Virus record (IMG/VR): IMGVR_UViG_3300027708_000025
Location: 62,001 to 126,000 of that record
Origin: a virus
Direction: 5' to 3' (one strand)
Length of the DNA stretch: 64,000 nt
Both the position numbers and the translations under genes were made by a program. A model generated the notes under the pieces. That model saw nothing but the letters and a program-made list of their open reading frames with translations. It had not been told where the DNA came from and did not search any database. The stretch's first letter is position 1. Every line of letters starts with the position of its first letter. Below are positions 7,721 through 53,822 of the stretch, one piece after another.

Positions 7721-8761
7721 TTATACTGTGAATTTCTGATTATGCGTCATAAAGTTTTTCTTACGCATAACTGTCTTTGCTACTAAATCTAACTCTTCCG
7801 CATCTCTATCCCACTTCAATACAAATGGCAAATTGATTTGCGTCTTCATGTCATTCAATACTGCTTCAGCATCAGGTCCCAATGCGGGAATCTTTTTACC
7901 ATACTTTTGAATCGTCTTTTTAAATAACAACTGCAATTCATCTACTGTGATAGGTTTACCATTGCGTGAATCGTTAACTCTATCTAAAAAATGTTTAGTG
8001 AATGCAACATCAACATTTAACACTTTGAACAATTGATCTAGGTATTTTTCTAATTCATTTAATTGCGCCTGAGAAACTTCTTCAATTAATTGCTCTTTTT
8101 CAAATTGTTCTGTAAACATTCCACTACGCCCATGTCGTAAGAAAATCATTGAGCCAGTCTTTTCATCTTGTAGAATGATTGGCTTCTTAGGATACTTTCT
8201 GCCGTAGGTTCGTATTGCATTTCCAACTTCATCACTACCAACATACTTTTCATACTTAAGATATTTCTTTTTACCTGTACGTGCTTTGTTAAAACGCTCT
8301 GTGTCAACAACAAATACATCATTCTTTGCGAATCTACGTAAGAATGTTCTGCTTGCTGGAGGATTACCATCTAAGCCTGCAATGCCACTAGTTCCATTTG
8401 CAACATCTTCTTCTACGCCTTCAGACAAATATGTCTTGCCATTGTAATAGTCTAAGAATTGTTCTTCTAACGTTTCTTCTTTAATGTTCTTTTCTTCTTT
8501 GAGAAGGAACAATGCGGCCGCATAGGACGCAAGTTTGGTTTTACCAAATGGCAATTTTTCCAAAACTTTTTTAAGTTTTAGAATCAATAAGTCAAACTTA
8601 GTGAATGAATCATCTTGTGCTATTGTTCTTTTATCTGAAGGTACGACAATGTTTCCTTCGTCATCAATAACACCAGTTTTGTATGCTTCCCACTCTCCGA
8701 ACGGAGTAGTAAACAATCTTAAAATTCTATACACTAAGTATAAGTCTACTAAATTTGCCAC
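7721..8761 (-). CDS. Conserved T4-like phage protein, probable internal or structural protein
   Basis: A 346-residue protein. The N-terminal third (LVDLYLVYRILRLFTTPFGEW, then KLPFGKTKLASYAAALFLLKEE near residues 70-91) and the C-terminal domain (FTKHFLDRVNDSR to LVAKTVMRKK, residues 255-338) both look conserved and I recall them in T4-like marine phages, where they occur next to virion genes. The C-terminal segment has the feel of a small toxin-like or nuclease fold, without a definable catalytic set. It is followed by the lysis cluster and preceded by structural genes under a late promoter. Function unknown. Confidence 0.75.
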   Translation of the reverse strand: MANLVDLYLVYRILRLFTTPFGEWEAYKTGVIDDEGNIVVPSDKRTIAQDDSFTKFDLLILKLKKVLEKLPFGKTKLASYAAALFLLKEEKNIKEETLEEQFLDYYNGKTYLSEGVEEDVANGTSGIAGLDGNPPASRTFLRRFAKNDVFVVDTERFNKARTGKKKYLKYEKYVGSDEVGNAIRTYGRKYPKKPIILQDEKTGSMIFLRHGRSGMFTEQFEKEQLIEEVSQAQLNELEKYLDQLFKVLNVDVAFTKHFLDRVNDSRNGKPITVDELQLLFKKTIQKYGKKIPALGPDAEAVLNDMKTQINLPFVLKWDRDAEELDLVAKTVMRKKNFMTHNQKFTV

Positions 8762-11061: not shown

Positions 11062-12897
11062 TTATTTTGCCGTATCTTTCAATTCAGGATTGATTTCAAT
11101 TGGTTCTCTTTTACCTGTCAATTGATCGCCTTTTTGAACTGTAGCCTTGTTAGGTGCTTCTTCATTCTTTGTTTTTTTTCTCATGTCTTTCCATGACTTC
11201 TTTTTAGCTTCAGTTACAATTTCAGTTTGTTCTTTGTTTAGAAGATTGTGATAGCGAACTGCTTTCTTCAAGTCTTTGCTTGCGTTTGCATTCTTTGGAT
11301 CACCTGCTTTGTCAAAATGATCGTCTGCTTTTTGTTGTGCTTCATTACCACGTTTGAGTTTATTAAGTTTGTCTTTAATAGTGGCTATGATGCTTTCAGA
11401 CATTTTTGGTTTCTTACCAGCCTTCTTCATTGCGATAGCGATAGCCGCTTGCTGTGCTGGTGATGCCGCTTCTTTAGCCAAACGCTTTTCTGCTCTGTCT
11501 TGTCCAATGCTTCTCATTGAAAATTTGTGTCCCGCTTTATTTGCAGACTTTGGATCGTTGTCTCTAATTCCTTTACCAATCTTGTTGAACTGATCGCCCT
11601 GATCTTTTTCAGATTTCTTAGCATAAGAGTGCAATGTGTCTTTGTTCAATTCGTCTAACTGAATCTCTTCGATGTACATGTTCAACTCATACTTGTGATT
11701 GTCCATATTGTACACTTGAAGGTGTAATTTCTTTTTAGATTCTTTGCCATCTTTCATTAGATTGACAGAGAATGAATTTGTTTTACCAGCAGATGGTTTC
11801 TTAGGACCAGTAGCAACTTTATCGTGCCAATCGTCCATGTCTACTTCAAAGCCACGCTTCTCTGCTTGTTTGATTGCTGTCTGTACTGCTGTGGAATAAT
11901 CTTTATGATAAACTTCGTAGTCAGATTTTGCTTCATCCATACGCCCATTAGATGCAAGTCTTTCTTTACGTCTTTGTGCGGCAAAGTCAGCACCTTGTGG
12001 TTTCTTTTTATTGCGAATTGCGGCTAAGTCAAAGCCATCAATCTTGCCGTTCTTGTTCTTGTCAAGTGCTTTTTGTTTTGGTGATAATTCTTCACCACGC
12101 AACTTTGCTAAATCAGAACCATCAATCTTGCCGTTCTTATTTTTATCTAATGCTTTTTGTTTTGGTGACAACTCTTCATTCTTTCGTTTTGCATAGTATG
12201 CGGCAAGAGCCATTTTCTTTCTCATCTCTTTAGACTTACCAGCAAACTTAGGATTATCAGAGTGTACAAAATCGTGAATAAAATCACCGGCGGTTGCATC
12301 TTTAGCAAGAACTTCAGCCAATTCAATATCTAATTCTTCATTTGTTTTCTTAGCATCATTGTCAAATTGCTTTCTAGTTGCTTTGATAATGCCAGAGAAA
12401 CGCTTGTTACCTTTTTTGATATCGCCTGCTTTGTCTGCGGCTGATGCATCAGCGCCAGCTTTCTTTTTGTAGTCTGCTAGTTTGTCGGTTGACAACTCAT
12501 CAATTTGCACTTCTTCTTTTTTCATGCTCTTTCTCATAACACGATTCTGTGCAAGTTTAGATACAAATTTTACATTTGCATCAGCAAGAGATTTTAAAGA
12601 TTTTAAATCTAATTTATCAAGCATAGCAATTAATTTCTTGTATGTGTCGCTATCCGGATCGATTGTATTAATCTTAGAGTACTCTGCTTTCAAAGCGGCA
12701 ATTTGAGATGCGCTAAATGATTCTGTCATTGTTTCTTCCTTCTGTAAAGATTTTTTTTGTGCTGAAAGTGCTTGACGTTCTTTATCTTGTTTCATACGTA
12801 ACTGAATCATTTTCAATGATAATTGGGCACGTTTTTCAGCAGTTTTATCTGCAATCGCTGTACCTGATCCAACTTTTGCTTCTTCTATATTTTTCAT
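11062..12897 (-). CDS. Large Lys-rich EF-hand protein, probable internal head protein
   Basis: A 611-residue, highly charged helical protein. I chose the ATG at 12897 because GGAGAT lies 8 bases upstream; the reading 12 bases longer would use GTG. The N-terminus MKNIEE-AKVGSG resembles the T4 internal-protein start MKTYQEFIAE-ARVGAG, with a possible gp21 site after IEE. Two near-identical 28-residue units carry EF-hand loops (DKNKNGKIDGSDL and DKNKNGKIDGFDL). Two related modules, QIDELSTDKLADYKKK and QLDELNKDTLHSYAKK, look like spaced (I/L)-D-E protease sites. It sits directly after the 960-residue mosaic protein. Probably packaged in or cleaved within the prohead (inference). Confidence 0.72.
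   Translation of the reverse strand: MKNIEEAKVGSGTAIADKTAEKRAQLSLKMIQLRMKQDKERQALSAQKKSLQKEETMTESFSASQIAALKAEYSKINTIDPDSDTYKKLIAMLDKLDLKSLKSLADANVKFVSKLAQNRVMRKSMKKEEVQIDELSTDKLADYKKKAGADASAADKAGDIKKGNKRFSGIIKATRKQFDNDAKKTNEELDIELAEVLAKDATAGDFIHDFVHSDNPKFAGKSKEMRKKMALAAYYAKRKNEELSPKQKALDKNKNGKIDGSDLAKLRGEELSPKQKALDKNKNGKIDGFDLAAIRNKKKPQGADFAAQRRKERLASNGRMDEAKSDYEVYHKDYSTAVQTAIKQAEKRGFEVDMDDWHDKVATGPKKPSAGKTNSFSVNLMKDGKESKKKLHLQVYNMDNHKYELNMYIEEIQLDELNKDTLHSYAKKSEKDQGDQFNKIGKGIRDNDPKSANKAGHKFSMRSIGQDRAEKRLAKEAASPAQQAAIAIAMKKAGKKPKMSESIIATIKDKLNKLKRGNEAQQKADDHFDKAGDPKNANASKDLKKAVRYHNLLNKEQTEIVTEAKKKSWKDMRKKTKNEEAPNKATVQKGDQLTGKREPIEINPELKDTAK
12010..12177 (-). repeat. Tandem duplication of an 84-bp EF-hand unit
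   Basis: Two adjacent in-frame copies of a 28-codon unit (EELSPKQKALDKNKNGKIDG, then SDL or FDL and a short linker) inside the large Lys-rich gene. The copies are almost identical in protein but differ at synonymous positions, so the duplication is not recent and is under protein-level selection. Each carries a canonical D-x-N-x-N-G-x-I-D-x-x-D calcium-binding loop. Confidence 0.8.
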
Positions 12898-12910
12898 GCG
12901 TATCTCCACT

Positions 12911-15793
12911 TTAATCTAATTCGCTTACGCTTTTGTCTGAACGCCACATTTGGCAAGACCAGTAGTTTGCTTTCCACTTTGGTCCAGGATTGTCGCAACC
13001 GTGTCTAGCACGATAACTTTTTAATCTTTCAGGATCGTCACGTTTGATTTCCATATTAGGATCACCAAAACGAACGACAACAACTTTACCATTTGGTCCC
13101 ATAGTGTATACACCAAACTTCTTTGGACCATCAGGTGTTCTGAATGGATCATTTAACTTAACAGATTTACCTTGATATTCTGCTTCATTGACAACTTGTT
13201 CCCAATCAACTTCTTCTCCAATTGAATCTTTTTCGCAATCACCGCAACAAGATTGATGATCTGCTGTTTGAATTTCTGTAGGTTGACCTGGAGTATCTGA
13301 GGCATATGCTTTACGCATCGCATCTGTACCCCATTCTAATGCTTCAGCAAATTTAGAAAACGCTTCATTCTTGTTAACCTTAGATGCTAGATCACTATCC
13401 GCACCACCCCATGTTCCTTTACCTTTTGTGATAAAAGAATTCACTCTAGCGAATGCCCATTGTTGTGATGTTGTTCCAGGACGATGGCCACCTTGCCATG
13501 CCGCCATGCCACGATTATATACTGCTTTTAGAATGCTATATGGTATACCAGATTTTTCTGCTTTCTTTTTCAATCCTTCGATTTCTTCTAAGATTGGTTT
13601 GAATTCTTCGTATGCATCACCAAACTCATCTGGTTGCATTTGACTTAGATGCATATCCATTTCTGCACCAGAAAACTCGCCATCATCTTCTTCACCATTA
13701 TCATCAATCTCAAAATTATCATCAAATTCTAGATAGTCACGAACTGTAGCAATGTAATCTTCTGCTTTAGTAATCTTAGATAAAACCCACTCATCAGGCT
13801 CTTCATCCATGTCATCTAACTGTTGGATTAAATCTTCTGCATCATCAATAATGTTAGACAATTGAATTTGTGCCATAGAGATTCCATCCATCTCTGCGGA
13901 ATCATCATATTCATCATCATATTCATTGTCTTCATTCATACCGACAAGTTTCATGCCAGTAACGTCTTGAATTAATTTCCAAGCGGCAGATTGATTTTTA
14001 TCTGCAATAAGTTTTTTAAGTTTTTCTTTTTCTTCTTTTGTTGCAACTTCAAAGAACTTCATCATTTCCATCATGCCAATGTTGCCTTTGTATGCGGCTT
14101 CATCAATAGACTCTTTTACAGTATTGAAATATGCTTCTGCTTCTCTTTTGCTTTTAAATGTCTTAGTCTGACTTGCAACAGAACCAGTTACTTTCCACTC
14201 AATGTGGTCTGTCGTTCTTCCAGCAGGCATTGAAATCTTTTCTATTTTTGGTGTTGTTTTTGTTGCAGGAATAATGTACTTTTTAAATCTATCGTCCACA
14301 GCCTCTTTTTGCAACTGTGTCTTTGTCATTCTAAACAATGCATCGCTTGAAGTTACCATATCAAGTAGCGTTGTCAACAAATCATTTGTGACATTGCGCT
14401 CTGAGGGACTTAACATGTCACCAGATTTTAATTTATCAACAGAACGTTTGATAACTGCAAGAGATTTAGTGTCTGCTAATCCCAAACGAACCAATTGGTC
14501 TAATCTAGAAACTTCTTTTCTTTGCTCTGGAGTTTTTACGCCTTCACCATACATCTGTTTGAATTTTTTTGTAAATTTAGATTGTGGTAAACCTTTTTCT
14601 CTAGCCTCTTTATCTCCAGGTGCATCTTTGTATGCGCTCTTATCTGAATCCGATTTCGGTCCATTTGTCGCAAAGTGTGATGCTCTAGCGTCTTTTGTAT
14701 CTTTGTCTAAACCAACATAATACTTCTTAGGTTGTGTTCCGTCTTTCTTTGCAACATCTTTGTCTTGTGGTAGAATTGGTTTTTCGATAATGAATTCTGC
14801 AAAGATATGATTGATATCTTCTTTGTTCATCATCATGGTTGCTTTACGTACAACTTCAGCGGATCTTGCTTTTGGAAATAAACGAACTGCAAGTTTTTTA
14901 ATAGCAGGTAAAGATTTTTGTAATCTCTTATCAACTGCAATTTTCTCTCCAGTACTTAAGTCTGCATAGTTTTTACCACCAGCAAGTCTTGATCTAAAGA
15001 ACTTGTATGCCATTTTAGTGGCACGACCTTTTAAATGTTTTGTATCTGCAAATCTTTTCATTTGCAATGCTCTAGCACGTTGAATGCGTTTTGACATTCT
15101 ACGTAACTGTTGCGCTCTCTGTCTACGTGCAGAGAAACTTAATACCGCTTCGTCTTGTTGTTCTATTTCTTCGTTCATGCCACCGCCTATGTATTTGTCT
15201 AAAAGTTTTTTCACCTTAGCTTTGTTTTTAGCTTTTGGATATAAATCATCAATGATTTTATCTCTACCTTCTGAGTCTGCGTCTGAATACATTTTTCTAA
15301 CTTGACTACCAGAGAATGCTTCTTTGCCATTAACTTTAAAGTCATGTTTCTTAGTCACAAAAATATATGCGTGTGTCTCAAATGATTCACACTTATCAAT
15401 GCTGACAAATGGTTGATAGTATGCTGGTGAACCATCTTTCTTTGTGTACTTCATGGGATCACGTTCAGAACGAATAAGAATGAGAACATCTTTCTTTTCG
15501 TCATACTTCTTCATAATCTCTTCTGGATTAATAGGCGAAACTGTTTGAACGAAATCGTCTGTAACTCCTGCTTGTTGTGCTAGGAATTCTTTGTCTTTGA
15601 ATGGGATTGGGCGGACTTTTGTGTCATTGCTAGATGCAACATAAAAGTCTGGAGTGTGGAATTTTTGTTTGGCTTGAGTGTAACTACTCAAATGACCGGC
15701 GTGAAATGGCTGAAAGCCACCACCGTATACGACAATTACTTTGCCCTTGGCTTTTGCTTCATCAAGCAATATTGATTCTTTAAACGATTTCAT
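12911..15793 (-). CDS. 960-residue mosaic virion protein with N-terminal NMNAT-like cytidylyltransferase domain
   Basis: Residues 1-12 (MKSFKESILLDE) look like a capsid-targeting peptide ending in a gp21-type LDE site. Residues 17-205 form a nucleotidyltransferase of the NMN adenylyltransferase/cytidylyltransferase fold, with GGFQPFHAGH (H31-A-G-H34) and SGSQVRK (161-167). Residues about 220-330 are an Arg/Lys-rich helical segment. A YYVGLDKDTKDARASHF module follows. Near 780-850 is GIPYSILKAVYNRGMAAWQ-type sequence, which I recall as DUF5824. The C-terminal 90 residues (KLNDPFRTPDGPKKFGV to NPGPKWKANYWSCQMW) are another recurrent phage module. A late promoter lies at 15858-15865. It may be proteolytically processed in the head (inference). 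Confidence 0.8.
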   Translation of the reverse strand: MKSFKESILLDEAKAKGKVIVVYGGGFQPFHAGHLSSYTQAKQKFHTPDFYVASSNDTKVRPIPFKDKEFLAQQAGVTDDFVQTVSPINPEEIMKKYDEKKDVLILIRSERDPMKYTKKDGSPAYYQPFVSIDKCESFETHAYIFVTKKHDFKVNGKEAFSGSQVRKMYSDADSEGRDKIIDDLYPKAKNKAKVKKLLDKYIGGGMNEEIEQQDEAVLSFSARRQRAQQLRRMSKRIQRARALQMKRFADTKHLKGRATKMAYKFFRSRLAGGKNYADLSTGEKIAVDKRLQKSLPAIKKLAVRLFPKARSAEVVRKATMMMNKEDINHIFAEFIIEKPILPQDKDVAKKDGTQPKKYYVGLDKDTKDARASHFATNGPKSDSDKSAYKDAPGDKEAREKGLPQSKFTKKFKQMYGEGVKTPEQRKEVSRLDQLVRLGLADTKSLAVIKRSVDKLKSGDMLSPSERNVTNDLLTTLLDMVTSSDALFRMTKTQLQKEAVDDRFKKYIIPATKTTPKIEKISMPAGRTTDHIEWKVTGSVASQTKTFKSKREAEAYFNTVKESIDEAAYKGNIGMMEMMKFFEVATKEEKEKLKKLIADKNQSAAWKLIQDVTGMKLVGMNEDNEYDDEYDDSAEMDGISMAQIQLSNIIDDAEDLIQQLDDMDEEPDEWVLSKITKAEDYIATVRDYLEFDDNFEIDDNGEEDDGEFSGAEMDMHLSQMQPDEFGDAYEEFKPILEEIEGLKKKAEKSGIPYSILKAVYNRGMAAWQGGHRPGTTSQQWAFARVNSFITKGKGTWGGADSDLASKVNKNEAFSKFAEALEWGTDAMRKAYASDTPGQPTEIQTADHQSCCGDCEKDSIGEEVDWEQVVNEAEYQGKSVKLNDPFRTPDGPKKFGVYTMGPNGKVVVVRFGDPNMEIKRDDPERLKSYRARHGCDNPGPKWKANYWSCQMWRSDKSVSELD

Positions 15794-15857: not shown

Positions 15858-15865
15858 TATTTATA
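15858..15865 (-). promoter_or_regulatory. T4-type late promoter element TATAAATA
   Basis: An exact TATAAATA on the minus strand, 65 bases upstream of the mosaic NMNAT-like gene start at 15793. It places this enzyme-like gene in the late, virion-assembly class. Confidence 0.8.
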
Positions 15866-16964: not shown

Positions 16965-17288
16965 TTATACACTAAAACTACTGCCACAACCGCAAGTGTG
17001 TTTTGCATTTGGATTAGTAATTACAAATTCTTTTCGCATAAACTCATCTTTGTAGTCTATGTTTGCATCTTGTAAATATTGCATACTCATTGCATCAATT
17101 AAAACTCTAAATTCGTCTAGAGGAAATTCAAAATCATCATCATTCTTAACTTCGTCCATTGTAAATCCGTAATTGAATCCAGAACATCCACCACCCACAA
17201 CAAACGTTCGTAGTGAAATGTTTGGATTGTTTTCTTCTCGTAACAAGTCTATGATCTTAGACTTTGCAACATCTGTTATTGTAATCAT
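16965..17288 (-). CDS. A-type iron-sulfur carrier protein (IscA/ErpA family)
   Basis: A 107-residue carrier with the three invariant cysteines C35 (GGGCSGFNYGF), C99 and C101 (TCGCGSSF), exactly the family signature. A-type carriers accept Fe-S clusters from the IscU scaffold and pass them to apo-proteins. The gene overlaps iscU by 32 bases, so the two are translationally linked. In a phage, likely client proteins are host or phage Fe-S enzymes needed during infection. The specific paralogue (IscA, SufA or ErpA) cannot be decided from the sequence. Confidence 0.95.
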   Translation of the reverse strand: MITITDVAKSKIIDLLREENNPNISLRTFVVGGGCSGFNYGFTMDEVKNDDDFEFPLDEFRVLIDAMSMQYLQDANIDYKDEFMRKEFVITNPNAKHTCGCGSSFSV

Positions 17289-17640
17289 TTATGGCCGCCT
17301 TTATAGCATCTTCTGCAAGTATTGAACAATGAATTTTAACCGGTGGTAAGGCAAGTTCTTCAGCAATTTGTGAATTAGATATCTTTCCTGCTTCGTCAAG
17401 TGTTCTGCCCTTGACCCACTCTGTGACAAGACTGCTGGATGCAATTGCACTTCCACAGCCGTATGTTTTGAATTTTGCATCTGTAATTATTCCTTCTTCT
17501 ACTTTAATTTGAAGTTTCATAACATCGCCACATGCTGGCGCACCCACCATACCAGTGCCTATGTTATCAGCATCTTTATCAAATGATCCCACATTTCGTG
17601 GATTTTCGTAATGATCTAAAACTTTTTGAGAATATGACAT
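17257..17640 (-). CDS. iscU: Iron-sulfur cluster assembly scaffold IscU
   Basis: A 127-residue full-length IscU. The three cluster-binding cysteines are C37 (GAPACGD, with D39), C62 (YGCGSA) and C105 (KIHCSILAED, with H104). The LPPVK motif at 98-102 is the recognition site for the HscA chaperone, which implies that the phage protein plugs into a proteobacterial ISC machine. It ends with an extra Cys pair (NNRCCKV). It is followed by an overlapping IscA. No phage cysteine desulfurase is seen, so sulfur must come from the host enzyme. Confidence 0.96.
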   Translation of the reverse strand: MSYSQKVLDHYENPRNVGSFDKDADNIGTGMVGAPACGDVMKLQIKVEEGIITDAKFKTYGCGSAIASSSLVTEWVKGRTLDEAGKISNSQIAEELALPPVKIHCSILAEDAIKAAINDYNNRCCKV

Positions 17641-17704: not shown

Positions 17705-18931
17705 TTACCTCTGCCAACCTTTAATGATATCAGGTGAGAAGTTTGCATAGCTGAATTGCATTCTGTCAACTAACTTGACTGCATTGCCTTTGATCTTGTC
17801 AATAGCAACATACCCCTCAACACCAGTTACTTCGTAACCTTTTTTAGTCAACAAGAAAGTATTCAACGTCTTAACTTCATCCATTTTCTTAATCAAAATC
17901 AACTTCGCTTCTGCTAATAGATTCATCATTGTGAAAATGTCTTCTAAATGTGATTTGTTTTTTGGCGAGAAGAATTTAAGTACTTTGCTTTTCTTTAGCA
18001 TCTGAGTAGCACGACCACGTTCACCTTTACCTTCAGCCTGTTTCTCGTAGTAATCTTCAATGTATGTAATCAATTCTTTAACGTGCGCTTTGACGTTTGT
18101 GATTTTCAACTGTTGACGTACTTTTGAATTGTTGAATGTCTTAATGCGTTCAATCAAATCTTCATCTGTATTAATGTAGTTTAGAGTAGCGGCATCTAAT
18201 TTTTGGAATATCTTTCCAGCATCAGATAGAATTGCTGTCACTTCGTCACTCTCTGCTTGTGTCAACGTAGCTTTACCAGACACATCGTGATAGACTGCAC
18301 TTGTCATCCAAACGTTTGAATTTTTTGTAAGTGTGCTTAGAATGTCTTTACCAAAGACTGCTGATAGTGTCTCAAACGAATCACCTTCGTAAATTGTATG
18401 CCAAACGATACCAATCTTTGCTTTTTGTATCTCTTTAGCAAGTTCAGTTTCTGTCGGTACTGCATAGACTAAAGTATTTGGATGAAACGTAACATACGAT
18501 TCACCTTCAATTGTTTCTGTCTTTAAGTCTGCTTGTGTGAATAGCAAGTCGCCTTGAATGACACCTTTGATGTTGATCTTAGGCAAATACATCAAACATG
18601 CTTTGAGTTTGTCTGCTAAGTCGCCAGATGTGTCTGCATCAACTTCTGCTGGAGTTTTATACACTTTGGGATTTTTATTGAAGACGCCTTTTTTCGCAAC
18701 AAAGAATTTGCCGTCTGTTGGGTCTTGTCCTGCAAAGACTGCTGGCGCACCATCCCACTTGACTGAAATGTCAACTTTGCTTTTGGAATGTCCAGCAAGC
18801 ATATCACGCACCGCTCTGAGTGCGTTTATGCTATCTCTAGTACCTTCAACACCACCATTGAGAACATCGTCTTCCGCATGTTCCATGTGAGTGTTTTTCT
18901 TTTCAATAAGGTATTCTTTAAATTTAAACAT
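17705..18931 (-). CDS. Ligase-like nucleotidyltransferase with capsid-targeting-like N-terminus
   Basis: A 408-residue protein. Residues 1-10 (MFKFKEYLIE) match the capsid-targeting pattern shared by several proteins here and end in an LIE site. The body has features of the covalent nucleotidyltransferase (ATP-dependent ligase/capping enzyme) fold: K58-W-D60-G61 as motif I, FFVAKKGVFNKN, GVIQGDLLF, then E372-G-Y-V as motif IV and VKLV (385-388) as motif V. I recall the family as a phage DUF (possibly DUF6267). A late promoter sits at 18957-18964. A hairpin replaces the usual Shine-Dalgarno region. It may be a DNA/RNA-repair enzyme packaged with the genome (inference). Confidence 0.75.
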   Translation of the reverse strand: MFKFKEYLIEKKNTHMEHAEDDVLNGGVEGTRDSINALRAVRDMLAGHSKSKVDISVKWDGAPAVFAGQDPTDGKFFVAKKGVFNKNPKVYKTPAEVDADTSGDLADKLKACLMYLPKINIKGVIQGDLLFTQADLKTETIEGESYVTFHPNTLVYAVPTETELAKEIQKAKIGIVWHTIYEGDSFETLSAVFGKDILSTLTKNSNVWMTSAVYHDVSGKATLTQAESDEVTAILSDAGKIFQKLDAATLNYINTDEDLIERIKTFNNSKVRQQLKITNVKAHVKELITYIEDYYEKQAEGKGERGRATQMLKKSKVLKFFSPKNKSHLEDIFTMMNLLAEAKLILIKKMDEVKTLNTFLLTKKGYEVTGVEGYVAIDKIKGNAVKLVDRMQFSYANFSPDIIKGWQR

Positions 18932-18960
18932 AATAGGTCTGTCGTTGCAATAGACCTATT
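18932..18960 (-). promoter_or_regulatory. Leader hairpin abutting the start codon
   Basis: AATAGGTCT (18932-18940) and AGACCTATT (18952-18960) form a perfect 9-bp inverted repeat with an 11-base loop. On the minus strand the stem ends directly at the ATG (18931) of the ligase-like gene, and no Shine-Dalgarno is visible. It lies inside the leader made from the late promoter just upstream. It could restrain translation or serve as a protein-binding site. Confidence 0.65.
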
Positions 18961-18964
18961 TATA
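18957..18964 (-). promoter_or_regulatory. T4-type late promoter element TATAAATA
   Basis: An exact TATAAATA on the minus strand, 26 bases upstream of the ligase-like gene start and 1 base after the stop of the preceding gene. It marks the ligase-like gene as late expressed. Confidence 0.75.
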
Positions 18965-49551: not shown

Positions 49552-50904
49552 TTACATCAAGTTCGTAATTGAAAATCTACGATAGTAGATGTTCTTGTTA
49601 GCGAAAGTCAATGTACCATCAGCAGCCGATGTTGCGAATGGGTTTGCGACCATACCGTAACGTGTTTTGAAACCAATCTTTGGTTGGAATGTGTCTTGAC
49701 CAACTGCACGAACCATTTGCAATGGAACGTATGGGCAATAGAACAAGCCAGCATCAAAAGCTGAAGTGCCTTTGTAGCCGATTGTTGCATAGTGTGTACC
49801 AGATGTTGCGGCAAAATATGGATCAATATAAACTTTGATACGACCATTCAATACACCAGCGAATGTGTTACCTGTGTCATCAACTTGTAAGTTGTTAGAT
49901 GCAAGTGCTGGAGTGTAATCAAGAACACCAGCCATTTGCAATGCAGATGCTACGTCTGAAGAACAGATAAGCACGTTACCTTTACCTCTACGAGTTGCTT
50001 TAGCAATTGCATTGGCTTCACGCTCTAATTGGAACATCAAACCTTTGAACTTCTCAACAGACCAACGACCGTTAGAGTCAACATCAAGGTTGAATGTGCC
50101 AGCAGTTGTAACGTTCTCTTGTGCGCCAATAGTAGCTGTCAAGTTGATAGTACGAACAACTTCACGGTTAATTTCAGCTAAGATTTCTGTAGAAAGAATG
50201 TTTGCTAATTCTTGTTCAGCATCCAAACCATGGACTGCTTTCAAGTCTTGTGCAAGTTCCATTGTGTATTCTGCTTTCAAAGCACGGCTCTTTGCAGTAA
50301 CAGCAATCTTTTCAATGGAGAATGCCATCTCTTGGAATTGATTACCAGAACCATCACCTAATGCTTCAGCATTGGCTGTTGTCATACCTGTACCACGTGT
50401 GTACTCTGTACCACCTGACAAGTCAGCTGGAGATGCACCTGTGTGGGCTGCGGCAACTGGAGATGTTCCACCTGCAACAGAAGAGAATGAAGTGTTTGCT
50501 TCGTTGAACAATGCTTCAGTTCCACCTTGTGTGGTGTAACGGCTACGCATTGCAAAGATCAAGCCTGTTGGACCTGTCATTGGTTGAACACCGCAAATGT
50601 CGTATGCGATTAAGTTAGGTGCAGAACGGCGAACCAAGCTAATTAAAACTGGATCATAAATGTCGATTGCACCATCGGCCGCTGTAGATGAAGATGCGCC
50701 CATTGCGTTAGCAGGTGCAGTTTCAGACAACAACGATGTTTGATTGCGATAACCACCAGAACCCTGTGCATCTTCACGGCAAGCACGTTCTTGGTTCTCA
50801 AGAAGTTGTGCTGTTACGGCACGCTTATGGGAATCCTTGATTGAGGCTAAAGCGCCATGGTCAAGAACTGGTGCCCATTTTTTTAAAAGATTTTCTACGC
50901 TCAT
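49552..50904 (-). CDS. 23: Major capsid protein (T4 gp23-like)
   Basis: A 450-residue HK97-fold capsid protein. The propeptide is visible (MSVENLLKKWAPVL...) with a prohead-protease site LSE at 59-61 (SLLSETAP). The body has YDICGVQPMTGPTGLIFAMRS and the C-terminal YGMVANPF. It forms the hexamers of the icosahedral head. A late promoter TATAAATA (50933-50940) and a terminator frame it. No separate gp24 vertex gene is seen next to it. Confidence 0.97.
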   Translation of the reverse strand: MSVENLLKKWAPVLDHGALASIKDSHKRAVTAQLLENQERACREDAQGSGGYRNQTSLLSETAPANAMGASSSTAADGAIDIYDPVLISLVRRSAPNLIAYDICGVQPMTGPTGLIFAMRSRYTTQGGTEALFNEANTSFSSVAGGTSPVAAAHTGASPADLSGGTEYTRGTGMTTANAEALGDGSGNQFQEMAFSIEKIAVTAKSRALKAEYTMELAQDLKAVHGLDAEQELANILSTEILAEINREVVRTINLTATIGAQENVTTAGTFNLDVDSNGRWSVEKFKGLMFQLEREANAIAKATRRGKGNVLICSSDVASALQMAGVLDYTPALASNNLQVDDTGNTFAGVLNGRIKVYIDPYFAATSGTHYATIGYKGTSAFDAGLFYCPYVPLQMVRAVGQDTFQPKIGFKTRYGMVANPFATSAADGTLTFANKNIYYRRFSITNLM

Positions 50905-50945: not shown

Positions 50946-51854
50946 TTATTTCTTGAGTGTTCTAGAAATATTTTGTACATAGTGGTTCATTACTGGAGTG
51001 AATGATTCTTCAATAGTAGAAACATCATCGTCCATTGGAGCCGCTTTTTTAACTGTATCTTGTGAAGATTCATCAAAATATTTCTTTTTTGTTAAAAGAA
51101 GTTTTTCTTTGTAGTCTTGTTCTGAAACGAATTCAATTCCTTCTGCAAGAGATTTTAATTTTGCAAATTGAACTTCGCTAAGGCCTTCTGAAACTTCGCT
51201 AACAATGTGTTCTTTTTTGAAGATATTGATTTGTGAATTCAAGTTTGCAACTTCAGTAACTGCTTTGTCTAGTTCAGATTCAAGTGTTTCAACTTGTTCT
51301 GCAAATTCCTCAACAACATTTACTTTGTCTTCTGGAATGTCAACATAATGCTCTGTGAATAGGTTCTTTAAACCAATCATAAAATCTTCAGCTAATTCAG
51401 CCTTGATACCCTTTTCGATAGCAAGTTTGTTTTCTTCCATCCACTCAGTAACGACATACTCAAGGTATTCGTCAACTTTTGTAACCAAATTTTCGTTGAT
51501 AGATGCAACTTCTGTTTCTAATTTTTCTGCATATTCTTCTTCTAATGCAGTTGTTGCTTCTTCTACTTTAGCAAAAATAGCCGCTTCAAAAATAGCTTTA
51601 GCATTATTTTTAAATTCTTCAGAAAGAGATTCACCAGAGAAAATAGCATCAATGTCTTCTTTTACTTTTGCTTGTTTTTTCTCTTTCATCATTTTTTCTT
51701 TTTCGTCTTCTTTTTCATCCGCCGCTTTTCCTTTTGGTTCATCGGCATCATCATCTTTCATTTCTTTAGCTTTTTTCTTTTCGATGGCCGCTTTTAACGC
51801 AGGTGGAAGTTCTCCTTCCAACAATTCATCATCCTTGTTATTTACATCAGTCAT
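50946..51854 (-). CDS. 22: Prohead scaffold core protein (T4 gp22-like)
   Basis: A 302-residue, very Lys/Glu-rich protein, mostly helical coiled coil (ATTALEEEYAEKLETEVASI...). The terminal region ends YVQNISRTLKK, like the conserved gp22 C-terminus. It builds the internal scaffold that is digested by gp21. Located between gp21 and gp23 as in T4. Confidence 0.9.
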   Translation of the reverse strand: MTDVNNKDDELLEGELPPALKAAIEKKKAKEMKDDDADEPKGKAADEKEDEKEKMMKEKKQAKVKEDIDAIFSGESLSEEFKNNAKAIFEAAIFAKVEEATTALEEEYAEKLETEVASINENLVTKVDEYLEYVVTEWMEENKLAIEKGIKAELAEDFMIGLKNLFTEHYVDIPEDKVNVVEEFAEQVETLESELDKAVTEVANLNSQINIFKKEHIVSEVSEGLSEVQFAKLKSLAEGIEFVSEQDYKEKLLLTKKKYFDESSQDTVKKAAPMDDDVSTIEESFTPVMNHYVQNISRTLKK

Positions 51855-51909: not shown

Positions 51910-52560
51910 TTATAGCTTGGAGAGGAAATCTTTAAACACTTTTATCATGTTTTCTTCCAAGTCTTTCTTAGAAGACTTCTGAATGACTTGTCTCTGTGTT
52001 GAAATGTCGGCTTCTCTAATGATTCCGTTATCCCAAACCCATGCTTTATTTTCCATAATACCACGTACATATGCATCTGGTGCTGAAGGATCGGCTACGA
52101 TATCTGCACATGTTGCGAGATAAAAATCGTTACCAACAACTTTAGTTCCATCTTTTCCTTCTACGAGACTACCTAAGCCTCTTGTAGATACGCCTAGCGT
52201 TGCGCCTTCAGTCATTAAATTCTTTACGATGTTACCGTATGGTGTTTCCATAATCTTTGCTTTACCGATGAAGTTGTTTCCATCTTGACGCAAACTCTTA
52301 GTAATGTGTGACACACGTTCTAAATTGATAGTTGGACCATCTGGATGCCCTAACTCACCATAAGCACGATTCTTCATTACACTTTCAGTAACATATCGAT
52401 CTGTTTCTTTTTGCAAAACTGCTAATGGATACATTCTTCCATTACGATTCTTTTGTTCTGCTTGCATGAAGATACCTTCAATGTAGAAACTTCTACCGCC
52501 AGCTTCGTTTGCTTCAGTAATGATATTTACTTGCTCATTAATTTCTGTGATTAGTTTCAT
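51910..52560 (-). CDS. 21: Prohead protease (T4 gp21-like)
   Basis: A 216-residue serine protease of the herpesvirus-assemblin fold. The family blocks FYIEGIFMQAEQKNRNGRMYP, ELGHPDGP (His) and LGVSTRGLGSL (Ser) are clear. It cleaves scaffold, capsid propeptide and internal proteins at (L/I)-x-E. Its own start MKLITEI...IITEANEAGG has an ITE site for self-processing. Expressed with the core proteins upstream. Confidence 0.95.
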   Translation of the reverse strand: MKLITEINEQVNIITEANEAGGRSFYIEGIFMQAEQKNRNGRMYPLAVLQKETDRYVTESVMKNRAYGELGHPDGPTINLERVSHITKSLRQDGNNFIGKAKIMETPYGNIVKNLMTEGATLGVSTRGLGSLVEGKDGTKVVGNDFYLATCADIVADPSAPDAYVRGIMENKAWVWDNGIIREADISTQRQVIQKSSKKDLEENMIKVFKDFLSKL

Positions 52561-52847
52561 TTTAGTCCTGCCGATGTTCTTTTTCTAAGTGACCTTGTTC
52601 TTTTGCGTAGAATCAAAGCAAGTTTTGGTGCACGTTTTCTAGCCGCTTTGCGTTGTGCCATTTTACGATGCATTTTTTCTTGTGAAGACATTCTTACAAG
52701 TTTGCCTCCTAAGACTTTATATCCAGGTGTTGCTGATACAATTTTTCTGCGCTGAACAATTCCAGCACGTACTCTATTGACTTTAACAAGCCTAGCTTCG
52801 TCTACCTGTTCGTCAGACAAAGATATAAAATCTTTAAATTTTAACAT
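52557..52847 (-). CDS. Basic prohead core protein with capsid-targeting-like N-terminus (gp68-like position)
   Basis: A 96-residue, very basic protein. Residues 1-17 (MLKFKDFISLSDEQVDE) have the capsid-targeting pattern and end in a VDE site. The rest (RRKIVSATPGYKVLGGKL..., KMHRKMAQRKAARKRAPK) is a nucleic-acid-binding-like basic segment, similar in style to the Arg/Lys-rich module inside the 960-residue protein. It sits in the T4 gp68 position upstream of gp21. Probably packaged with DNA. Confidence 0.78.
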   Translation of the reverse strand: MLKFKDFISLSDEQVDEARLVKVNRVRAGIVQRRKIVSATPGYKVLGGKLVRMSSQEKMHRKMAQRKAARKRAPKLALILRKRTRSLRKRTSAGLK

Positions 52848-53315: not shown

Positions 53316-53822
53316 TTATTCTTTCGCTATAGTTTTTGCAAATGCTAAAAGTACTTCAGCATCTTCTTCCAACTGATTCAAAAAGATTTCTTGATTGCTT
53401 TCGTCTAACTGATCGTAAAGATTAGAGAGTAAATCAACATCTTCGTTTTTCAAAGCACCACGTGCCTGTGCGGCTTTAAGCATTGCAACTCTATCTTTGT
53501 ATCCAGCAACACCAGGTTTGATATCTTTAGCGGCTTTCTTTTCAGCGGCATTTGGATTACTAATGTGTTTCATTGTAGTCTTAGACTGATGACTATCAAC
53601 TTCACCAAATGGTTGCTTGTTGTCGAGTCTATCAGCAGGACGTTTGCCAGAACCTTTTTTAGTGTCGTGTGGTCCGATTTCTTCAGGTCCGACTTTTTCT
53701 AAATCTCCAGGGTCTTTAGTTTGAGCAAGATATGACACGGCTGCCATTTTATTGGCAATAGCATCTTTGTACTTTACTCTTTCTATTTCATCCAACTGGA
53801 TAAAACTTTTAAAGTTCTTCAT
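53316..53822 (-). CDS. Prohead core/internal protein with capsid-targeting-like N-terminus
   Basis: A 168-residue charged helical protein. Residues 1-12 (MKNFKSFIQLDE) match the capsid-targeting pattern with an LDE site. The remainder has a disordered middle (KKGSGKRPADRLDNKQPFGE) and a helical end (LYDQLDESNQEIFLNQLEE). It overlaps the gp67-like gene by 14 bases. Probably a scaffold/internal head protein removed or packaged during maturation. Confidence 0.78.
   Translation of the reverse strand: MKNFKSFIQLDEIERVKYKDAIANKMAAVSYLAQTKDPGDLEKVGPEEIGPHDTKKGSGKRPADRLDNKQPFGEVDSHQSKTTMKHISNPNAAEKKAAKDIKPGVAGYKDRVAMLKAAQARGALKNEDVDLLSNLYDQLDESNQEIFLNQLEEDAEVLLAFAKTIAKE

What the first reader, a model, noticed from the sequence alone, without database searches (positions are those of the whole stretch)
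12911..15793. 960-residue mosaic protein combining a nucleotidyltransferase with several mobile phage modules
The ORF is continuous but reads as at least five segments: a targeting peptide, an NMNAT/cytidylyltransferase-like domain (H31-A-G-H34, SGSQVRK), an Arg/Lys-rich helical segment, a DKDTKDARASHF module, a DUF5824-like domain, and a C-terminal KLNDPFRTPDGPKKF module. I recall several of these as separate or differently combined pieces in other phages. Glu-containing (L/I/V)-x-E sites between segments suggest cutting into several mature proteins by gp21.
Basis: partly seen in the sequence, partly recalled or inferred. Interest (0 to 1): 0.7.

Follow-up and report, generated by a model that had tools for sequence, protein, structure and literature searches.

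The report
Cuttable mosaic protein in phage heads
A T4-like water phage encodes one 960-residue protein that looks like a chain of interchangeable parts, led by a NAD-making-type enzyme, probably packed into the virus head and cut apart there by the head-maturation protease, so one gene could supply several proteins for injection into the next host.

Summary
The ORF is real: minus strand, 15793 to 12911, 960 aa, ATG. It is not a fusion artefact; many independent viral contigs carry the same continuous ORF. It is a mosaic: an internal-protein-like leader, an NMNAT-type nucleotidyltransferase, an Arg-rich helical module, a DKDTKDARASHF module, a helical segment, a small beta module, a YKGN module, an acidic segment, DUF5824 and a C-terminal YQGK module. 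Modules are lost, inserted, split into separate genes or fused to other genes in relatives. Indel edges fall on Glu residues in gp21-like contexts, and [LIVM]-x-E precedes three modules far above chance. Stand-alone versions in T4-like phages carry their own leader plus site; those in non-T4 phages have neither. The gene has a T4 late promoter, and the phage encodes gp21, gp22 and gp23. Virion mass spectrometry of three cyanophages detected related nucleotidyltransferases; all three begin with the same kind of leader and site. Best reading: a virion-packaged polyvalent-type protein, equipped for gp21 processing. Packaging and leader removal are likely. Internal cutting into several mature proteins is favoured but unproven. 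About 13 of 30 relatives lack the leader, and structure models were poor. New variant of a known kind.

The parts
12911..15793 (-). 960-aa mosaic ORF (P0001), ATG start, stop at 12911-12913
   Evidence: 100% match in its own 150,107-bp virus record; 99% identical full-length ORF in L002
15858..15865 (-). TATAAATA, T4-type late promoter, 65 bp upstream of the ATG
   Evidence: 9 exact copies in the window, all on the minus strand; most lie shortly upstream of a structural or late gene start, none before the replication genes checked
15758..15793 (-). leader (aa 1-12) MKSFKESILLDE|A, like the T4 capsid targeting sequence plus gp21 site; relatives have MKTFKASLTE|A, MKSFKTSLTE|A
   Evidence: CTS definition PMC9026906
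15173..15757 (-). NMNAT-type nucleotidyltransferase domain (aa 13-207), HAGH and SGSQVR motifs
   Evidence: Pfam PF01467, TIGR00125 7.8e-7, Foldseek top 50 all NadD/PPAT but weak, motifs kept in relatives
14783..15148 (-). Arg/Lys-rich helical module (aa 216-337), preceded by NE208 / DE215, ending at IIE337
   Evidence: phrog_23027; module search; upstream site 17 of 26 against 5.9 expected
14543..14782 (-). DKDTKDARASHF..APGD..KQMYGE module (aa 338-417); deleted in L016 (336-416)
   Evidence: same module in HTVC008M, Melnitz and others
14303..14542 (-). helical SRLDQLVRLGL segment (aa 418-497)
   Evidence: alignment
14099..14302 (-). optional beta module (aa 498-565), absent from many relatives (deletion 498-561)
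13931..14098 (-). YKGN module (aa 566-621) after SIDE565|A; deleted in L008 and L016 (567-620)
   Evidence: (24 of 27 with [LIVM]xE against 3.7 expected)
13583..13930 (-). acidic segment (aa 622-737)
   Evidence: sequence, conserved core DEEPDEWVLSKIT
13343..13582 (-). DUF5824 module (aa 738-817) after ILE736
   Evidence: Pfam PF19141 7.6e-18; free-standing MKFKDFIAE|DPTASLKKKAEKSG versions
13184..13342 (-). variable linker (aa 818-870) where relatives carry a CWxGYxxxGTKxxxGKxVPNC mini-module; ends VNE870
12914..13183 (-). C-terminal YQGK..LNDPFRTPDGPKKF module (aa 871-960)
   Evidence: phrog_7595; separate ORF with own leader in L024-L031
51910..52560 (-). gp21-type prohead protease (the presumed cutter)
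   Evidence: Pfam Peptidase_S77 3.3e-36
50946..51854 (-). gp22-type scaffold
   Evidence: Pfam T4_CASP 8.6e-68
49552..50904 (-). gp23 major capsid protein; likely own processing site LSE61|TAP
   Evidence: Pfam Gp23 5.1e-146; site
17705..18931 (-). DUF6267 protein with leader MFKFKEYLIE, late promoter at 18957-18964; fused upstream of this chain in L004 and L228

Best explanation
This is a late, virion-packaged internal head protein built like a polyvalent protein. An N-terminal capsid-targeting-type leader takes the chain into the prohead core with the scaffold. The gp21 protease removes the leader and then cuts at E|A/S-type sites in the linkers, releasing several separate proteins inside the head: the NMNAT-type enzyme, the Arg-rich module, the DKD module, the YKGN module, DUF5824 and the YQGK module. 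These are packed with the DNA and enter the next host. There the enzyme would act at time zero on the host's NAD/nucleotide pool, and the other modules would bind DNA or host targets. Steps: mosaic and edge sites are shown by sequence; packaging and leader cutting are inferred from close parallels; internal cutting is inferred from the coincidence of edges and sites; action in the host is inference only.
For: Edges of indels among 15 relatives lie within 2 aa of [LIVMFYQ]xE in 7 of 11 cases (1.16 expected, p 5e-5; strict [LIVMF]xE 5 of 11 against 0.81, p 6.5e-4); L016 lacks 336-416, from site 337 to site 417. In nonredundant contexts [LIVM]xE lies within 8 aa upstream of the YKGN module in 24 of 27 (3.7 expected), of the C-terminal module in 55 of 83 (15.8), of the Arg module in 17 of 26 (5.9). 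Before YKGN the P3 residue is L/V/I/M in 25 of 27, P1 is E in 25 of 27 and P2 is free, which is the gp21 rule. Split-off modules in T4-like contexts have a leader and site (MKSFKDY...ITE|SEYQGK, MRATEFIE|ASYKGN, MKFKDFIAE|DPTAS); in non-T4 phages the C-terminal module starts bare (MAKYQGR, MATYKGK). Gene fusions L004/L228 keep FIRE|AK / FIKE|AK at the joint and have a leader at the new N-terminus. gp21, gp22, gp23 present; late promoter. Related enzymes in virions of S-CREM2, S-SZBM1 and S-SCSM1 start MKNFSSFLTE|A, MRFRQFIIE|A, MKSFLQFLKE|A.
Against: No proteomic data for this phage or any close relative, and no cut demonstrated. About 13 of roughly 30 P0001-type proteins begin directly with the enzyme and lack the leader. 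This leader has Ser at position 7, one of the two targeting residues in T4, and fails my strict leader pattern. E215, E417 and E497 lack a P3 of L/I/V/M. Linkers are Glu-rich; against all Glu the edge test is weaker (9 of 11 against 3.4, p 5e-4). DUF5824 gave no site enrichment at the first anchor used. In SPN3US nearly all prohead-protease cuts remove N-terminal propeptides. AlphaFold models are low confidence.
Confidence: 0.58

Rival explanations
1. Packaged but essentially uncut: gp21 removes only the leader, and the rest is injected or retained as one multidomain polyvalent protein. Internal Glu sites mark recombination-tolerant linkers, not cut sites.
For: In SPN3US 13 of 14 mapped cuts remove N-terminal propeptides; among polyvalent proteins some are cut before packaging and some, such as the N4 virion RNA polymerase, are packaged whole; several edge sites are imperfect.
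Against: P2-free, P3-hydrophobic, P1-Glu pattern before the YKGN module and E|A/S-type sites before other unrelated modules; leader and site both missing in non-T4 phages; site kept at gene-fusion joints.
Confidence: 0.22
2. Core-like protein: only the enzyme is a mature product; the Arg-rich, acidic and small modules act as a long scaffold-like propeptide that gp21 chops up and expels, as for gp22/gp67/gp68.
For: T4 gp22, gp67 and gp68 are cut to short fragments; long propeptides are cut at several sites in SPN3US; Arg-rich and acidic composition; low predicted order.
Against: Modules exist as stand-alone, conserved proteins, some in non-T4 phages, and are joined to other enzymes (GH19); the C-terminal module stays about 65-97% identical over very different contigs.
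Confidence: 0.12
3. Not a virion protein: an enzyme with regulatory tails used in the infected cell, its leader resemblance coincidental.
For: A sub-clade has no leader; no direct proteomics for this phage.
Against: T4 late promoter; three of three cyanophage virion proteomes read here contain the related enzyme, each with leader and site.
Confidence: 0.08

Closest known systems
T4 internal proteins IPI-III and Alt (capsid targeting sequence, gp21 processing)
   Same: Short N-terminal leader of the M-K-x-F/Y type ending in L/I-x-E|A; late expression; gp21, gp22, gp23 in the same phage; presumed delivery with DNA
   Different: IPs are single small proteins and Alt is trimmed at both ends only; here about nine exchangeable modules with a candidate site at most edges
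Polyvalent proteins of phages and conjugative elements (Iyer et al. 2017, PMC5512222)
   Same: Disparate domains in one shuffled chain, late/virion context, predicted injection and processing
   Different: Their proposed processing is by zincin-like metallopeptidase domains in the chain; none was found here, and the sites fit the separate prohead protease
Cyanophage virion NMNAT/cytidylyltransferase (S-CREM2 gp154, S-SZBM1_140, S-SCSM1 ORF91)
   Same: Same enzyme superfamily, same kind of leader and E|A site, detected in virions
   Different: 286-409 aa, without the Arg, YKGN, DUF5824 and YQGK modules; I found no report of their processing
Methylophilales phage Melnitz gp18 (QZI94529) and Pelagibacter phage HTVC008M AGE60464/AGE60465
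   Same: Cultured phages with nucleotidyltransferase + RAAHF/MFGE module + DUF5824 + YQGK module (the last a separate leader-bearing gene in HTVC008M); Melnitz gp18 starts MKKFSEIIE|A
   Different: Different enzyme subtype, no Arg or YKGN module in those chains; annotated as hypothetical or cytidyltransferase

Membership tests
T4-type internal head protein (CTS + gp21) | N-terminal leader of about 10 aa with targeting residues at 4 and 7 and L/I-x-E at the end | tested here: inconclusive
   MKSFKESILLDE|A has F4, I8 and LDE|A, but S7 and two extra residues; relatives have MKTFKASLTE|A with T4 spacing; 13 of about 30 lack it
T4-type internal head protein (CTS + gp21) | Prohead protease of the S77 type in the same phage | tested here: met
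   Peptidase_S77 3.3e-36 at 51910-52560
T4-type internal head protein (CTS + gp21) | Late expression | tested here: met
   TATAAATA 65 bp upstream, as before structural genes; promoter use itself not measured
T4-type internal head protein (CTS + gp21) | Present and processed in the virion | not testable with these tools
   Only relatives of the enzyme were detected in virions of other phages
Polyvalent protein | Several disparate domains in one chain with shuffled architectures | tested here: met
Polyvalent protein | Late-gene/virion genomic context | tested here: met
Polyvalent protein | Hub domains such as zincin MPTase, ArdC, ART, MuF | tested here: not met
   Pfam, PHROGs and NCBIfam scans found none in P0001
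NMNAT (nicotinamide/nicotinate-nucleotide adenylyltransferase) | (H/T)xGH and S-x-S/T-x-x-R type motifs of the nucleotidyltransferase fold | tested here: met
   HAGH and SGSQVR kept in relatives
NMNAT (nicotinamide/nicotinate-nucleotide adenylyltransferase) | Score above an NMNAT equivalog cut-off | tested here: not met
   Best NMNAT models score 14-20 bits against cut-offs above 110; only TIGR00125, the general family, is passed by the isolated domain. Substrate therefore unknown

The most novel reading that the evidence does not exclude
T4-like aquatic phages carry true capsid polyproteins: one gene supplies five or more mature proteins that gp21 releases inside the head, and swapping happens at the protease sites, so the sites double as safe joints for a fast-evolving injected arsenal.
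Probability: 0.45. Interest if true: 0.75.

Novelty: new variant of a known kind. Interest (0 to 1): 0.6.

Why it matters
Prohead proteases are known to trim or destroy single head proteins. A prohead protease that releases several working proteins from one packaged chain would be a new way for a phage to load its head and to evolve its injected proteins by module swapping. It would also give a role to widespread unknown families (DUF5824, DUF6267, phrog_7595, phrog_23027) and fit the repeated finding of NMNAT-like enzymes in cyanophage virions. The prediction is sharp: named Glu residues, testable in cultured phages such as Melnitz.

Tried and rejected
Frameshift or assembly fusion: rejected, continuous in many independent contigs, and a similar chain in cultured Melnitz. 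PDB sequence searches for the enzyme and three modules: no significant hit. AlphaFold full-length and enzyme alone: mean pLDDT 47 and 45, not used for domain claims; Foldseek of the full model only suggests NadD/PPAT. NAD-salvage partner: no NAPRTase/NadV family match in the 150-kb record. Paralogous modules elsewhere in the same genome: none significant. DUF5824 enrichment with the first anchor was negative; re-anchoring showed a regular [LIVMF]xE at -6..-4, but that was done after looking. The leader regex was written after seeing part of the S-CREM2 N-termini; a looser form gave only p 0.03 for non-structural proteins, and on S-SZBM1 the fixed regex gave 1 detected and 1 undetected hit, p 0.06. 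Literature searches found no DUF5824 paper and no description of such a polyprotein; the library holds open-licence papers only.

Full report
What is there. The ORF runs on the minus strand from 15793 to 12911 and encodes 960 residues from an ATG. The window is positions 62001-126000 of a 150,107-bp virus record. The phage is T4-like: gp21 prohead protease, gp22 scaffold and gp23 capsid protein are all within the window. P0001 follows a T4-type late promoter, TATAAATA at 15858-15865. The window holds nine exact copies, all on the minus strand, including those before gp18, gp22, gp23 and DUF6267; none precedes the replication genes checked. As 4.9 copies are expected by chance, the strand and position bias is the argument, not the count.

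Domains. Pfam finds CTP_transf_like (22-107, over cut-off) and DUF5824 (741-801, 7.6e-18). PHROGs adds phrog_23027 (194-323), phrog_7595 (868-950) and phrog_3041 'cytidyltransferase'. The enzyme keeps HAGH and SGSQVR, and as an isolated domain passes only the general nucleotidyltransferase model TIGR00125; NMNAT equivalogs score far below their cut-offs. A weak fold match to NadD/PPAT agrees, but both AlphaFold models are poor. Many relatives carry a different enzyme subtype (FGRMNPMTNGH...MSGSKMR) in the same slot, 26% identical over about 120 residues.

Mosaic. tblastn against phage records shows pieces hitting separately: 11-171, 202-326, 328-957, 729-956, 870-950. Thirty-three viral loci give full-length, shortened and split forms. 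Among 15 aligned relatives the indel edges are 18, 208, 336, 416, 498, 561, 566, 620, 847, 856 and 874. L016 lacks 336-416; L008 and L016 lack 567-620; many lack 498-561; L023, L024 and L028 lack 1-208 and 337-620. In L024-L029 and L031 the C-terminal module is a separate ORF in another frame. In L004 and L228 the DUF6267 gene is fused upstream, giving about 1,380 aa. phrog_455 also spans DUF6267 plus nucleotidyltransferase. In L230 a different N-terminal half with leader MLSFKEILDE sits before the Arg module. The YKGN module also occurs with GH19 hydrolases (L063, L083) and with a FDIDETLF protein (L060; read from the sequence, no Pfam support).

Sites. Seven of 11 indel edges lie within 2 aa of a [LIVMFYQ]xE Glu (1.16 expected, p 5e-5); five of 11 for strict [LIVMF]xE (0.81, p 6.5e-4); nine of 11 for any Glu (3.4, p 5e-4). 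Alignment gap placement adds uncertainty. Upstream of module starts in non-redundant contexts, [LIVM]xE within 8 aa occurs in 24 of 27 (YKGN), 55 of 83 (C-terminal) and 17 of 26 (Arg), against 3.7, 15.8 and 5.9 in shuffles of the same stretch. Before YKGN, P3 is L/V/I/M in 25 of 27, P1 is E in 25 of 27, and P2 takes 11 kinds of residue. This is the T4 gp21 rule, L/I-x-E (PMC9026906). Because the site adjoins the module, shared ancestry could explain part of it. Two facts argue otherwise. Split-off modules in T4-like contexts have a leader as well as the site (MKSFKDYRADSIDCTCESIYEELVITE|SEYQGK; MRATEFIE|ASYKGN; MKFKDFIAE|DPTASLKKKAEKSG). And stand-alone C-terminal modules in non-T4 phages begin without either (Kolga MAKYQGR, CRP-901 MATYKGK). 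Within the C-terminal set, the LND/LNN group has a [LIVMF]xE within 8 aa in 30 of 31, the LNK group in 25 of 52; that the first group is T4-like is inferred from its members, not tested contig by contig.

Virion link. Three cyanophages with virion mass spectrometry contain the related enzyme: S-CREM2 gp154 (PMC10665884), S-SZBM1_140 (PMC9146016), S-SCSM1 ORF91 (PMC9602691). Their N-termini are MKNFSSFLTE|A, MRFRQFIIE|A and MKSFLQFLKE|A. In S-CREM2 all five proteins fitting the leader-plus-site pattern were detected, against 23 of 182 other non-structural proteins (p 5e-5); that pattern was written after seeing some of them. On S-SZBM1 the fixed pattern hit two proteins, one detected (p 0.06); in the 65-kb stretch of S-SCSM1 scanned it hit only ORF91, detected. 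P0001's own leader fails this strict pattern because residue 7 is Ser; it fits the general form.

Weak points. About 13 of roughly 30 P0001-type proteins lack any leader. Sites E215, E417 and E497 have Q, Y and Q at P3. In SPN3US nearly all mapped prohead-protease cuts are N-terminal (PMC10052503). No virion data exist for this phage.

Reading. Late expression and entry into the head are likely (about 0.8). Removal of the leader by gp21 is likely. Cutting between modules is favoured (about 0.6 to 0.7 given packaging). Injection and action in the next host is inference by analogy with IPs, Alt and polyvalent proteins (PMC5512222). An NAD-related role is possible but the substrate is unknown, and no NadV-type partner was found in the record.

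Noticed in passing
window 16965-17640 (-): NifU_N/IscU-type (1.5e-52) and Fe-S_biosyn/IscA-type (1.1e-15) genes: iron-sulphur cluster assembly proteins in a T4-like phage, lying between DUF6267 and the mosaic gene.
   Followed up: partly
window 11062-12909 (-): 615-aa ORF starting next to the stop of the mosaic gene, with two EF-hand/dockerin-like repeats (LSPKQKALDKNKNGKIDG) and several L-x-E|A/S sites (IEE|AKV, MTE|SFS, MDE|AKS, VTE|AKK): a second candidate internal polyprotein.
   Followed up: partly
window 7721-8761 (-): C-terminal part (VDVAFTKHFLDR...) matches the end of phrog_23027 / Sinorhizobium phage phiM12_458, whose middle matches the Arg module of the mosaic protein: the same pieces joined in another phage.
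   Followed up: partly
window 52557-52847 and 53316-53822 (-): Two small proteins beside gp21 with leader-like N-termini (MLKFKDFISLSDEQVDE|ARLVK, MKNFKSFIQLDEIER), likely prohead core proteins.
   Followed up: partly
L340 4705-7314 (S-CREM2 gp12): Cas9-like protein reported in S-CREM2 virions carries FASFMAEA near its N-terminus, like an internal targeting leader with cut site.
   Followed up: no
L339 14343-15236 (S-CREM2 gp160) and L348 30989-32362 (S-SZBM1_139): Two virion-detected unknown proteins contain the CWxGYxxxGTKxxxGKxVxxC-type mini-module that relatives of the mosaic protein carry before the C-terminal site.
   Followed up: partly
G000:C1:23007-23246 (outside the window): A second CTP_transf_like nucleotidyltransferase in the same phage, 1e-15, GGFDPLHSGH motif.
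   Followed up: no
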